Shown one piece after another: positions 54,966-60,282 of a stretch of 64,000 bases of DNA. This DNA is from Brucella gallinifaecis. Its GTDB lineage: Bacteria; Pseudomonadota; Alphaproteobacteria; Rhizobiales; Rhizobiaceae. Position 1 is the stretch's first letter; each line of letters opens with the position of its first letter. A program made the translations under genes and the position numbers. The notes beneath the pieces are model-generated. The model did no database searches and had not been told where the DNA came from. It was given only the letters and a program-made list of their open reading frames with translations. The DNA is taken from assembly GCF_006476605.1 (NCBI RefSeq), contig NZ_ML636812.1, positions 1 to 64,000 of the forward strand, given 5' to 3'.

Positions 54966-56204
54966 ATGACCGTACGTCTTTCATTTGCGCGTGAGCGTAT
55001 CAATGTTCTTCTTCTCGAAGGTATTAACCAATCTGCTGTCGATTATTTCAAGTCGTCTGGTTATACCAATGTCGTTCATCTTCCCAAAGCACTGGACAAG
55101 GCTGAGCTAATAGAGGCGATTGCTTCAGCGCATATTGTGGGTATTCGTTCGCGCACTCAGCTTACTGATGAAGTGTTTGAAGCCGCGCAGCGCCTTGTCG
55201 CGGTCGGCTGCTTCTCGGTTGGCACCAATCAAGTTGATCTGAAGGCTGCCAGAAAGCGTGGTATTCCGGTCTTTAATGCCCCCTTCTCCAACACACGTTC
55301 AGTTGCCGAACTGGTAATTGGCGAAATCATCATGCTGATGCGTCGTATTTTTCCGCGTTCCAATTCAGCGCATACAGGTGGTTGGGACAAGAGTGCGACC
55401 GGTAGCCGTGAAGTGCGCGGCAAGACGCTTGGAATTGTTGGCTATGGTAATATTGGTTCGCAGGTTGGTAATCTTGCGGAAAGCCTTGGCATGACCGTTC
55501 GCTATTTCGACATGACCGACAAATTGCAATATGGCAATGTTATCCCGACAGATACGCTCGACGAACTGCTTGAAATTTCAGACGTGATCAGCCTGCATGT
55601 GCCCTCGAACAAGTCGACGGCCAAGATGATCACTGAAGCCAAATTGCGCAAGATGAAGAAAGGCGCCTTCCTCATCAACAATGCGCGCGGTTCTGTGGTT
55701 GATCTGGAAGCACTGGCCAAGGTTCTTAAAGAAGGCCATCTTGGCGGTGCAGCGATTGACGTGTTCCCGGTTGAACCGGCATCCAACAAAGACCCGTTTG
55801 TTTCTCCATTGCAAGGGTTGGAGAATGTTATTCTTACTCCGCATATTGGTGGCTCAACCGAAGAAGCGCAGGAGCGTATCGGTATGGAAGTCAGCCGTAA
55901 GCTGGTTGAATATTCAGACGTCGGCTCGACACTGGGAGCGGTCAATTTCCCACAGGTACAATTACCAGCGCGTCCAAGCGGTACACGTTTCATGCATGTG
56001 CATGAAAACCGCCCGGGCATTCTCAACAGCCTTGTTAATATTTTCTCGTCGCATAACATCAACATCGTCAGCCAGTTTCTGCAAACCGATGGCGAAGTCG
56101 GCTATGTGGTGATCGAAGGCGATGCAATGGAAGACCATGCTGATGATGTATTGCAGGCAATGCGCGAAATTCCAGGAACAATTCGTACGCGCCTGCTTTA
56201 TTAA
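54966..56204 (+). CDS. serA: D-3-phosphoglycerate dehydrogenase
   Basis: The 412-residue protein matches the short E. coli-type SerA (410). The NAD motif is GIVGYGNIGSQVGNLAESLGM (about residues 157-177), the catalytic Arg is in NNARGSVVD and the catalytic His in TPHIGGSTEEAQ. A C-terminal ACT domain (FMHVHENRPGILNSLVNIFSSHNINI) binds serine for feedback inhibition. It oxidises 3-phosphoglycerate to 3-phosphohydroxypyruvate, the first step of serine synthesis, in the cytoplasm. A hairpin follows, and asd lies downstream behind its own leader. Confidence 0.93.
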   Translation: MTVRLSFARERINVLLLEGINQSAVDYFKSSGYTNVVHLPKALDKAELIEAIASAHIVGIRSRTQLTDEVFEAAQRLVAVGCFSVGTNQVDLKAARKRGIPVFNAPFSNTRSVAELVIGEIIMLMRRIFPRSNSAHTGGWDKSATGSREVRGKTLGIVGYGNIGSQVGNLAESLGMTVRYFDMTDKLQYGNVIPTDTLDELLEISDVISLHVPSNKSTAKMITEAKLRKMKKGAFLINNARGSVVDLEALAKVLKEGHLGGAAIDVFPVEPASNKDPFVSPLQGLENVILTPHIGGSTEEAQERIGMEVSRKLVEYSDVGSTLGAVNFPQVQLPARPSGTRFMHVHENRPGILNSLVNIFSSHNINIVSQFLQTDGEVGYVVIEGDAMEDHADDVLQAMREIPGTIRTRLLY

Positions 56205-56223
56205 ATAGTTGGTATTTTTATTT

Positions 56224-56255
56224 AAGGCCCACAATATATAGGCTAGGTGGGCCTT
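56224..56255 (+). terminator. Hairpin after serA
   Basis: AAGGCCCAC (56224-56232) pairs perfectly with GTGGGCCTT (56247-56255), 20 bp after the serA stop. The following bases are CCTGTTCG, so the T-run is poor; it still separates serA from the asd leader. Confidence 0.55.
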
Positions 56256-56390
56256 CCTGTTCGAATATGCGCACGTAATAAGCGATATTGTTTCTGCATA
56301 TTTGAGCAGTTTTGTTGCGCATATCACTGCAAACACATTGACTCTTTCTTCAAAGGGCTTAAAAGCGCATTCGGAAAAGGAGACAATCCC

Positions 56391-56519
56391 GTGAACGCTT
56401 GCTGCGCATCACATTGCCTGTATGAACTCAACGGCCTTAACGCCATTGATGTCCTTATGGCATCTGTTTCCAAAACTATCACGGCCACTTGCATTAAAAC
56501 GACCATCAAAACGGTCTGA
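56391..56519 (+). CDS. Putative 42-residue Thr/Ile/Lys-rich leader peptide upstream of asd
   Basis: A GTG start at 56391 follows the Shine-Dalgarno AAAAGGAG (56375-56382) at ideal spacing. The peptide ends KTITATCIKTTIKTV before TGA at 56517-56519: six Thr, three Ile and three Lys in the last fifteen residues. Thr, Ile and Lys are all products of the aspartate pathway that begins with Asd. E. coli thrL shows a similar Thr/Ile run. Downstream to 56586 lie alternative stems and a terminator-like hairpin. The four cysteines in the first half (NACCASHC) are unexplained. No homologue was consulted; the call rests on composition, ribosome site and position. Confidence 0.55.
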   Translation: MNACCASHCLYELNGLNAIDVLMASVSKTITATCIKTTIKTV

Positions 56520-56520
56520 C

Positions 56521-56586
56521 CCCTTGGCCTGCTCGCCCTCTCTCCCCGGGTCCGGCCCAGGGAAAGGCCCGCTGGTCGCGGGTTTT
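56521..56586 (+). promoter_or_regulatory. Candidate transcription attenuator of asd
   Basis: Three stems can form. CCCTTGGCC (56521-56529) pairs with GGCCCAGGG (56554-56562) with one mismatch. CGGGTCC (56547-56553) pairs with GGCCCG (56566-56571) with a bulged T; it crosses the first stem and covers the 5' arm of the third. CCCGC (56568-56572) pairs with GCGGG (56578-56582) followed by TTTT, a terminator-like hairpin. In addition GGCCA within the Thr codons (56483-56487) can pair with TGGCC (56525-56529), linking ribosome position to the fold. The T-run is short. Confidence 0.5.
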
Positions 56587-56616
56587 ATGGAAGCGGAGAG
56601 GACAGGAGACAAATAA

Positions 56617-57651
56617 ATGGGCTTTAAAGTTGCAGTCGTCGGCGCTACCGGAAATGTCGGTCGCGAAATGCTTAATATTCTTGAAGAACGTGGCTTTCCA
56701 GCTGATGAAGTCGTAGCACTCGCTTCACGTCGCAGTCAGGGAACGGAAGTGTCCTATGGCGATAAAACGCTGAAGGTTAAAGCGCTGGACCAGTACGATT
56801 TTTCCGACACTGATATTTGTCTGATGTCCGCTGGTGGCAATATTTCCAAGGAATGGTCTCCAAAAATTGGAGCACAGGGTTGTGTTGTTATCGATAATTC
56901 GTCTGCATGGCGTTATGATGCCAATGTGCCACTGATCGTTCCTGAAGTGAACCCGGATGCGATTGAAGGTTTTCGCAAGAAAAACATCATTGCCAACCCG
57001 AATTGCTCAACTGCACAGCTTGTTGTCGCATTGAAGCCTTTGCATGATGCGGCCAAGATCAAGCGCGTTGTCGTCTCAACCTACCAGTCCGTATCAGGGG
57101 CCGGCAAAGAGGGTATGGACGAGCTTTTCCAGCAGTCGCGTGCAGTTTTCGTGGCCGATCCTGTTACAGCTCAGAAGTTTACCAAGCGCATTGCATTCAA
57201 TGTGATCCCGCATATCGATGACTTCATGGAAGACGGCTATACCAAGGAAGAATGGAAGGTGATGGCCGAAACCAAGAAAATGCTTGATCCAAAAATCAAG
57301 CTCACGGCAACAGCTGTGCGTGTTCCGGTGTTCATTGGCCATTCTGAAGCAGTCAATATCGAGTTTGAAAACCCGATTTCGGCTGACGAAGCCCGTGAAA
57401 TTCTGCGTGAAGCGCCAGGTTGTCAGGTGGTCGATAAGCACGAAAATGGTGGTTACATTACACCTTATGAATCGGCAGGCGAAGACGCAACTTACATCAG
57501 CCGCATCCGTGAAGACATAACGGTTGAAAACGGTCTTTCATTGTGGGTTGTTTCGGACAATCTGCGCAAGGGTGCAGCTCTTAATACGATCCAGATTGCC
57601 GAGCTTCTTATCGCTCGTGGCCTGATTACACCTAAGGCCGTTGCTGCCTGA
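56617..57651 (+). CDS. asd: Aspartate-semialdehyde dehydrogenase
   Basis: The 344-residue protein has the NADP motif GATGNVGRE (residues 9-17), the nucleophilic Cys130 in NPNCST and the catalytic His in FIGHSEAVNIE. It reduces aspartyl phosphate to aspartate semialdehyde, the branch point to lysine/diaminopimelate, threonine, methionine and isoleucine, so it is essential for peptidoglycan. GACAGGAGAC precedes the ATG. A leader-peptide/attenuator region is proposed directly upstream, and a strong bidirectional terminator follows. Confidence 0.95.
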   Translation: MGFKVAVVGATGNVGREMLNILEERGFPADEVVALASRRSQGTEVSYGDKTLKVKALDQYDFSDTDICLMSAGGNISKEWSPKIGAQGCVVIDNSSAWRYDANVPLIVPEVNPDAIEGFRKKNIIANPNCSTAQLVVALKPLHDAAKIKRVVVSTYQSVSGAGKEGMDELFQQSRAVFVADPVTAQKFTKRIAFNVIPHIDDFMEDGYTKEEWKVMAETKKMLDPKIKLTATAVRVPVFIGHSEAVNIEFENPISADEAREILREAPGCQVVDKHENGGYITPYESAGEDATYISRIREDITVENGLSLWVVSDNLRKGAALNTIQIAELLIARGLITPKAVAA

Positions 57652-60207: not shown

Positions 60208-60282
60208 TGGCTGGGGCGCCTGGATTCGAACCAGGGAATGCCGGTACCAAAAACCGGTGCCTTACCGCTTGGCTACGCCCCA
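60208..60282 (-). tRNA. tRNA-Gln (anticodon UUG)
   Basis: On the minus strand the sequence folds into a cloverleaf. The acceptor UGGGGCG pairs with its 3' partner, the D arm is present, the anticodon stem CCGGU/ACCGG encloses loop UUUUGGU giving anticodon UUG, and the T arm contains GGTTCGAATCC. The 3' CCA is encoded (60208-60210). The 5' U and overall sequence closely follow E. coli tRNA-Gln. It lies about 150 bp from a decayed qorB copy, in a typical integration neighbourhood, although no integrase is present. Confidence 0.95.

What the first reader, a model, noticed from the sequence alone, without database searches (positions are those of the whole stretch)
56375..56616. Putative Thr/Ile/Lys-rich leader peptide with attenuator upstream of asd
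A 42-codon GTG-start ORF with an optimal ribosome site ends in a run with six Thr, three Ile and three Lys among fifteen residues, directly before crossing RNA stems and a terminator-like hairpin ahead of asd. Seen in sequence: the ORF, stems and spacing. Known: thr/ilv leaders such as thrL work this way. Inference: asd in this lineage is controlled by attenuation sensing end products of the aspartate family. An asd-specific leader of this composition is not one I know of. Doubts: the U-run is short, and the classical logic of competing stems is only partly evident.
Basis: partly seen in the sequence, partly recalled or inferred. Interest (0 to 1): 0.8.

Follow-up and report, generated by a model that had tools for sequence, protein, structure and literature searches.

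The report
Threonine/lysine leader peptide before asd
A short gene packed with threonine and lysine codons sits just before asd, the gene for a branch-point enzyme of threonine and lysine synthesis, and is found before asd in many related bacteria, so the cell probably reads its own amino-acid supply there to set how much enzyme it makes.

Summary
The 42-codon GTG ORF at 56391-56519 is real. It lies before a genuine asd and is present in all 30 genus loci examined, the window's included. A leader with a Thr/Lys-rich tail (typically ..KTTAKTTTKTV*) precedes asd in 170 of 190 loci of genus, family and order under a strict criterion; 0.4% of shuffled controls pass. Thr makes up 41% and Lys 21% of the last 14 residues. 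Ile is not enriched, so that part of the claim fails. A TTGAC box lies about 50 nt before the leader start in 66 of 69 loci. The leader tail can form a hairpin with some covariation. The segment after its stop codon can pair with that tail or with a downstream arm, and a CU-rich strand with the asd ribosome-binding region. This is attenuator geometry without a conserved terminator U-run (2 of 71). I favour translational attenuation sensing Thr and probably Lys. No experiment was done, and equilibrium folding does not show the switch. Prior art: the translated S. meliloti ORF SEP5 was suggested as such a leader, but called Sinorhizobium-only.

The parts
56338..56343 (+). TTGACT, -35-like box of the leader promoter
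   Evidence: TTGAC within 25-80 nt of the leader start in 66 of 69 family loci, mostly at -50 to -54; 2.8 expected by mononucleotide shuffling
56360..56365 (+). TAAAAG, possible -10 element, 16-nt spacer
   Evidence: same letters in genus loci and in several of the 14 rows printed; inference, not found by the consensus scan
56377..56382 (+). AAGGAG, ribosome site of the leader ORF
   Evidence: sequence; AAGGAG before the GTG in the genus rows printed
56391..56519 (+). leader peptide ORF, GTG start, 42 codons plus TGA; Thr/Lys-rich tail in the last 15 codons
56483..56487 (+). segment 1, GGCCA inside the leader codons (outer strand of hairpin P1)
   Evidence: outer helix 83.6% of cells paired in 66 relatives
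56501..56516 (+). inner P1 hairpin GACC...GGUC over Thr codons
   Evidence: GACC/GGUC is replaced by GACG/CGUC in relatives, with two changes on the tree
56521..56529 (+). segment 2, CCCUUGGCC just after the stop codon; can pair with segment 1 or with segment 3
56530..56543 (+). CU-rich strand (UGCUCGCCCUCUCU) that can pair with the asd ribosome-binding region
   Evidence: only 0.92 sd better than shuffles on average
56544..56562 (+). hairpin B; its 3' arm GGCCCAGGG (56554-56562) is segment 3
56564..56586 (+). hairpin D, the terminator-like hairpin with UUUU
   Evidence: present here; sequence variable and T-run not conserved in relatives
56596..56609 (+). GAGAGG and the AGGAGA Shine-Dalgarno of asd, partner of the CU strand
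56617..57651 (+). asd, aspartate-semialdehyde dehydrogenase
   Evidence: TIGR01296 asd_B 475.6 bits, cut-off 324.2

Best explanation
This is a ribosome-mediated attenuator of asd that senses charged tRNA-Thr, and probably tRNA-Lys, acting mainly on translation of asd. Proposed steps: (1) transcription starts just upstream of the leader (inferred from the conserved TTGAC box). (2) A ribosome translates the leader. (3) With ample Thr and Lys it reaches the stop codon, where its footprint covers segment 2, or it leaves and hairpin P1 takes segment 2. Hairpin B then forms, and the CU strand pairs with the asd ribosome region: low Asd. (4) When Thr (or Lys) is short, the ribosome stalls on the tail codons and covers segment 1. 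Segment 2 then pairs with segment 3 in the nascent RNA, which puts the CU strand in a loop and leaves the asd ribosome region open: high Asd. Shown by sequence and comparison: leader, codon bias, promoter-like box, and the capacity for P1, 2:3 and CU:RBS pairing. Inferred: stalling, direction of response, and the translational output.
For: ORF in 30 of 30 genus loci; the frame and a length of 41-42 codons are kept while the head differs between two clades. Strict criterion met in 30 of 30 genus, 51 of 60 family, 13 of 20 order and 76 of 80 named loci (named and unnamed sets share organisms). Thr 13-fold and Lys 19-fold enriched, tail against head. P1: covariation score 0.106 against 0.056, 0 of 500 shuffles as high, through Thr-codon changes; region z mean -2.05. 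RNAalifold run separately on 23 and 48 family sequences gives P1 plus a CU:RBS helix in both. Nascent RNA to the end of segment 3 with a ribosome at codon -5: P(2:3) mean 0.83, above 0.5 in 57 of 66; without a ribosome 0.24 (15 of 66), with P1 above 0.5 in 45 of 66. 2:3 duplex 2.05 sd better than shuffles on average. The three genomes without a hom match that were examined upstream (G039, G109, G124) lack the leader. S. meliloti SEP5 is translated (from PMC10117765).
Against: At full length the closing fold wins on average in all ribosome states, by about 5 kcal/mol over 2:3, and RBS opening energy does not fall on stalling, so the switch would have to be kinetic. P(2:3)=0 in the stop state is by construction (segment 2 left out). 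Two of the five P1 measures are no better than shuffles: pairs with a change on both sides 2 against 1.6, and further pair types 7 against 8.6; the swap rests on two changes on the tree, with one supported independent pair. 2:3 shows no covariation beyond shuffles. CU:RBS pairing is only weakly better than shuffles (11 of 68 beat 95%), and the 23-sequence group was picked in part by bearing AGAGAGC near the asd start, so that side is not independent evidence. In other families the SD is less paired. In the window's own ribosome-free RNA P1 is weak (0.00 nascent, 0.08 full) and 2:3 favoured even at full length (0.98, 0.78). Four reduced genomes that keep hom also lack the leader.
Confidence: 0.55

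Rival explanations
1. Classical transcription attenuation as in thrL: hairpin D is an intrinsic terminator and 2:3 an antiterminator.
For: The window's hairpin D is followed by UUUU, and in its close clade by up to UUUUU. Segment order resembles the thr/trp class (recalled).
Against: T-run of 5 or more in 2 of 71 family sequences, 4 or more in 16 of 71; the sister clade has GGGGUUCC instead; 0 plus-strand terminators by consensus scan of the window. D does not share strands with 2:3.
Confidence: 0.17
2. Leader translation controls Rho-dependent termination or mRNA stability, with the CU-rich stretch after the stop codon as the loading site.
For: C/U-rich segment after the leader stop codon in the aligned family sequences; no conserved intrinsic terminator.
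Against: Simple Rho logic (a ribosome stalled upstream leaves the site bare) predicts lower asd under Thr shortage. The region is predicted to be strongly paired.
Confidence: 0.12
3. Thr and Lys codons are a by-product of an RNA structure (ACG/ACC stems, AAA loops), not of amino-acid sensing.
For: Lys is AAA in 223 of 249 codons and Thr ACG/ACC in 454 of 487. P1 lies over these codons.
Against: Of 13 order-level loci with a leader, 11 lack the GGTC/CGTC ending, one has it unmatched and one (L098) keeps the match, yet Thr runs persist in them (KTTTTTT in L094, TTFTTTTSVKTT in L099).
Confidence: 0.06
4. The ORF encodes a small protein with its own function, unrelated to asd control.
For: SEP5 is translated and, as a tagged fusion, found in the S100 fraction.
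Against: The head is variable; the Thr/Lys tail and its distance to asd are what is kept; no Pfam match.
Confidence: 0.05

Closest known systems
S. meliloti SEP5 sORF (Hadjeras et al. 2023, PMC10117765; passages seen)
   Same: [quoted passage not shown]
   Different: Authors call it conserved only in Sinorhizobium; here such leaders are seen through much of the family and part of the order. The passages seen give no RNA structure. That their gene is asd is my inference; SEP5's sequence was not seen.
thrL attenuator of the E. coli thr operon (Rfam RF00506 Thr leader)
   Same: Leader peptide rich in codons of the end product; competing stems before the first gene (recalled, and passage in PMC12925634).
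   Different: Target is asd, Thr plus Lys instead of Thr plus Ile, no conserved terminator; no Rfam match at gathering threshold or, for 56200-56660, up to E=10.
Translational attenuators such as ermC (recalled, no call)
   Same: Stalled leader ribosome frees a sequestered ribosome site.
   Different: Stalling there is by drug and nascent peptide, here by amino-acid supply (inferred).

Membership tests
Ribosome-mediated amino-acid attenuator (trp/thr/his leader class) | Short ORF upstream, on the same strand, with its own ribosome site | tested here: met
Ribosome-mediated amino-acid attenuator (trp/thr/his leader class) | Cluster of codons for end products of the controlled pathway | tested here: met
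   Thr 41%, Lys 21% of tail in 84 loci; Ile not met
Ribosome-mediated amino-acid attenuator (trp/thr/his leader class) | Leader transcribed with the structural gene from an upstream promoter | tested here: inconclusive
   TTGAC box in 66 of 69 loci; no start site mapped; consensus scan negative
Ribosome-mediated amino-acid attenuator (trp/thr/his leader class) | Mutually exclusive stems whose choice depends on ribosome position | tested here: inconclusive
   Seen for nascent RNA, not at full length; partial covariation support for P1, none for 2:3
Ribosome-mediated amino-acid attenuator (trp/thr/his leader class) | Leader is translated and ribosomes stall on its codons under starvation | not testable with these tools
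   Translation reported for S. meliloti SEP5; stalling not reported in the passages seen
Transcription attenuator with intrinsic terminator | G+C-rich hairpin followed by a U-run before the gene | tested here: not met
   T-run of 5 or more in 2 of 71, 4 or more in 16 of 71; window has UUUU; scan finds none on +
Rfam Thr leader RF00506 | Match to the covariance model | tested here: not met
   no match at gathering threshold or E up to 10 for 56200-56660
SEP5-type asd leader of Sinorhizobium | sORF in 5'-UTR of the aspartate-pathway dehydrogenase gene, six Thr and three Lys codons near its end | tested here: met
   window tail 6 Thr, 3 Lys; asd identity. Met by description only: SEP5 itself could not be compared

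The most novel reading that the evidence does not exclude
An attenuator spread through the Hyphomicrobiales that reads two end products at once, Thr and Lys, on the branch-point enzyme asd, and acts by a kinetic folding decision that opens or closes the asd ribosome site rather than by transcription termination.
Probability: 0.35. Interest if true: 0.65.

Novelty: new variant of a known kind. Interest (0 to 1): 0.55.

Why it matters
asd sits where the lysine/cell-wall branch and the threonine/methionine/isoleucine branch of the aspartate pathway part (established knowledge). A conserved leader reading both Thr and Lys would explain how a large group of plant symbionts, soil bacteria and animal-associated bacteria balances these products. 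It widens an orphan observation in Sinorhizobium to a widespread element with a testable RNA mechanism, and it is a candidate for an Rfam entry.

Tried and rejected
Isoleucine as a sensed amino acid: rejected. Intrinsic terminator as the conserved output: rejected for the family, still possible in the window's own clade. Equilibrium ribosome-occlusion model of the asd ribosome site: no opening on stalling in the means over 71 family and 13 order sequences. It was followed by the nascent-RNA test, which was designed after that negative and is weaker for it. Rfam search: nothing. A Thr leader before homoserine dehydrogenase in the same genome: none among sORFs of 14 or more codons listed for L192. 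A second copy of the tail pattern in the genome: only this one. Link between loss of hom and loss of leader: 3 of 3 genomes without a hom match that were examined lack it, but so do four reduced genomes that keep hom, so no firm conclusion. G035, also without a hom match but 85% complete, was not examined upstream.

How sets were drawn: the 60 family loci are one per genus, the best-scoring genera first; the 20 order loci are one per family (L093 is a 168-base contig end); one search added 20 more divergent family loci; the 80 named loci are the best 80 of 563; the 28 loci outside the order are those among the 30 best matches. Rows dropped before counts: alignment A1 used 66 of 71 family sequences (left out L035, L064, L081, L088, L133 as hard to align). 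Searches counted 66, and 68, of 71 (the rest lack a GGCC/GGUC box near the stop or a partner). Of 71, one search found a leader start in 69. The 20 of 190 loci failing the strict criterion include some with a leader at other spacing or with 2-3 Thr (L046, L057, L100, L106, L161, L168). One search used 110 loci, those with full asd, 106 of them with a leader state. Searches held misoriented loci; the genus counts come. In one search the Rhizobium group was picked by its ending and by AGAGAGC in the last 30 bases before asd.

Full report
What is there. The window belongs to a genome whose nearest named relatives in the collection are Brucella and Ochrobactrum strains. Between serA (phosphoglycerate dehydrogenase) and asd (TIGR01296 asd_B) lies a 42-codon GTG ORF at 56391-56519 with AAGGAG eight bases before it. 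Its stop codon is 97 nt before the asd ATG.

Is it conserved? All 30 genus loci examined have it, the window's included (35 genomes were searched and 30 loci were returned). Two clades differ in roughly the first 25 codons but keep the frame, a length of 41-42 codons from the GTG, and the tail (SKTTTATCIKTTTKTV or SKTLTAITKTTTKTV, with variants). In the family the tail is typically KTTAKTTTKTV and the stop lies about 100-120 nt before asd. With a strict rule (4 or more Thr in the last 16 residues, stop 85-130 nt before asd) the leader is found in 30 of 30 genus loci, 51 of 60 family loci (one per genus, best-scoring genera first), 13 of 20 loci from other families of the order, and 76 of 80 named loci, 170 of 190 in all; named and unnamed sets share organisms. 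In 1680 shuffles of 84 upstream regions 0.4% pass and none has 6 Thr; those 84 were chosen for having the leader. Of 20 further, more divergent family loci, 11 have 4 or more Thr in the last 14 residues of an ORF ending 77-145 nt before asd. Of 28 loci outside the order, the best matches, two (L223, L241) have a Thr/Lys-rich ORF about 110-140 nt before asd; a third (L232) reaches 4 Thr at 61 nt without looking like this leader.

What does it read? Over 84 loci, Thr is 41% and Lys 21% of the last 14 residues, 13 and 19 times their share in the head; Ile is 2.4% against 4.3% in the head. The window's three Ile codons are a local feature. Lys is AAA in 223 of 249 codons, which may be structural, so Lys sensing is less certain than Thr sensing. 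In 11 of 13 order-level loci the family's RNA ending is gone, in one it is unmatched and in one (L098) it is kept, while Thr runs remain. This argues that the amino acid itself is selected.

Promoter. TTGAC lies within 25-80 nt of the leader start in 66 of 69 family loci, mostly 50-54 nt before it, against 2.8 expected by mononucleotide shuffling. In the window it is TTGACT 56338-56343 with TAAAAG 56360-56365. The consensus scan reported no promoter, so the -10 assignment is inference. This makes a start site downstream of the leader start unlikely.

RNA structure. Leader tail and post-stop sequence can form hairpin P1: GGCCA in the leader with UGGCC after the stop, and GACC...GGUC inside. In the Rhizobium group the inner stem is GACG...CGUC, through Thr-codon changes. 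Of 58 sequences (of 84) that bear one form only, 56 match (31 and 25) and 2 do not. The P1 covariation score is 0.106 against 0.056, and paired cells 84.8% against 81.0%, each reached by 0 of 500 shuffles; but the number of pairs with a change on both sides (2 against 1.6) and of further pair types (7 against 8.6) is no better than shuffles. On a tree of 110 asd genes the 3' letter changes only twice, with one supported independent pair. So covariation supports one pair, through few events. RNAalifold run separately on 23 Rhizobium-group and 48 other family sequences gives P1 in both, plus a helix between a CU-rich strand after the stop codon and the asd ribosome region (GCUCUCU with AGAGAGC in the first; CCCUCUC with GAGAGGG and a weaker extension onto AGGAG in the second), enclosing hairpins B and D. 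The first group was picked in part by bearing AGAGAGC, so only its GCUCUCU side is unselected. The P1 region folds 2.05 sd and the post-stop region 1.37 sd better than shuffles on average; the window's own post-stop region does not (+0.20).

The switch. Segment 2 (CCCUUGGCC in the window, 56521-56529) can pair with P1's leader strand or with segment 3, the 3' arm of hairpin B (GGCCCAGGG, 56554-56562). In nascent RNA from the stop codon to segment 3, 2:3 is the best or near-best fold (mean 0.3 kcal/mol from the best over 66). With a ribosome at codon -5 its probability is 0.83 on average, above 0.5 in 57 of 66 (0.73 and 51 of 66 for codon -9); with no ribosome it is 0.24 and 15 of 66, while P1 is above 0.5 in 45 of 66. 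A ribosome at the stop codon would cover segment 2 (footprint assumed 14 nt), so 2:3 is zero there by construction. This is the 1:2 / 2:3 / closing-fold geometry of an attenuator. The CU strand lies in the loop of 2:3, so 2:3 should hinder sequestration of the asd ribosome site. Against it: at full length the closing fold wins on average in all states, by about 5 kcal/mol over 2:3, and the opening energy of the ribosome site does not drop on stalling. 2:3 has no covariation beyond shuffles, although its duplex is 2.05 sd better than shuffles (37 of 68 beat 95%). The window itself is an exception: in ribosome-free RNA P1 is weak (0.00 nascent, 0.08 full) and 2:3 is favoured even at full length (0.98, 0.78), while with segment 2 covered the CU:RBS helix forms. 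In general the decision would have to be made during transcription, as in known attenuators (established knowledge).

Transcription or translation? A T-run of 5 or more beyond 40 nt after the stop occurs in 2 of 71 family sequences and of 4 or more in 16 of 71. Hairpin D varies freely in sequence. I therefore favour a translational output; in the window's own clade, with UUUU to UUUUU after D, some termination cannot be excluded. In other families of the order the Shine-Dalgarno region is less paired (0.16-0.63 over 13; family mean 0.59, above 0.5 in 54 of 71), so the exact output may differ there.

Physiological fit. Of 48 genomes searched for homoserine dehydrogenase four have no match; the three of them examined upstream of asd lack the leader, but four reduced genomes that keep hom also lack it. 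The hom gene of the window's genome has no such leader among the sORFs listed, and the tail pattern occurs once in that genome.

Known or new. Searches of the paper library (listings capped at 20-30 papers) led to one direct precedent: Hadjeras et al. 2023 (PMC10117765, passages seen) report S. [quoted passage not shown] I take that gene to be asd; this is inference, and SEP5's sequence was not seen. The present data extend this to much of the family and part of the order and add an RNA model. Vitreschak et al. 2004, the main comparative work on proteobacterial attenuators (recalled as such), is not held, so whether it mentions this element is unknown to me. Passages found in Corbino et al. 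2005 (PMC1273637), PMC2245857, PMC3766115 and PMC4117421 do not mention an asd leader; PMC12925634 concerns thrL-type leaders in Vibrio and E. coli. Rfam has no match.

Confidence in the best explanation was lowered from 0.6 to 0.55 (and the terminator rival raised from 0.15 to 0.17) because recounting showed two P1 measures no better than shuffles, a partly selected group, and the window's own RNA as an exception at full length.

Verdict. A real, conserved, previously hinted-at leader peptide of asd, Thr- and probably Lys-reading, most likely a translational attenuator. New variant of a known kind.

Noticed in passing
L151 and L152, upstream of asd (Bartonella-labelled records); L046: Degenerate leaders with few Thr codons (..GHKKTTKKII*..KHTAKTSKII*) about 105-112 nt before asd.
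   Followed up: partly
L223 and L241, upstream of asd (outside the order): Thr/Lys-rich ORFs (..APTTTKKTKTVA..ATTKTATKTAGKTTGV) before asd in two class-level loci, either independent origin or long retention.
   Followed up: no
L065, L076, L196, L197 (reduced genomes G105, G144, G126, G077): Homoserine dehydrogenase is matched but no Thr leader is found before asd. In G077 asd itself is matched in two pieces.
   Followed up: partly
L057 and L168: Leader intact but 165 nt before asd, some 50 nt further than usual, suggesting an insertion between them.
   Followed up: no
order-level loci L091-L110: In several, the CU-rich strand could pair either with the 3' side of hairpin B (such as GGGGGAGA) or with a distal GGGAGAG before asd, another possible competing pair.
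   Followed up: no
window 60208-60282, minus strand: tRNA-Gln gene, anticodon TTG.
   Followed up: no
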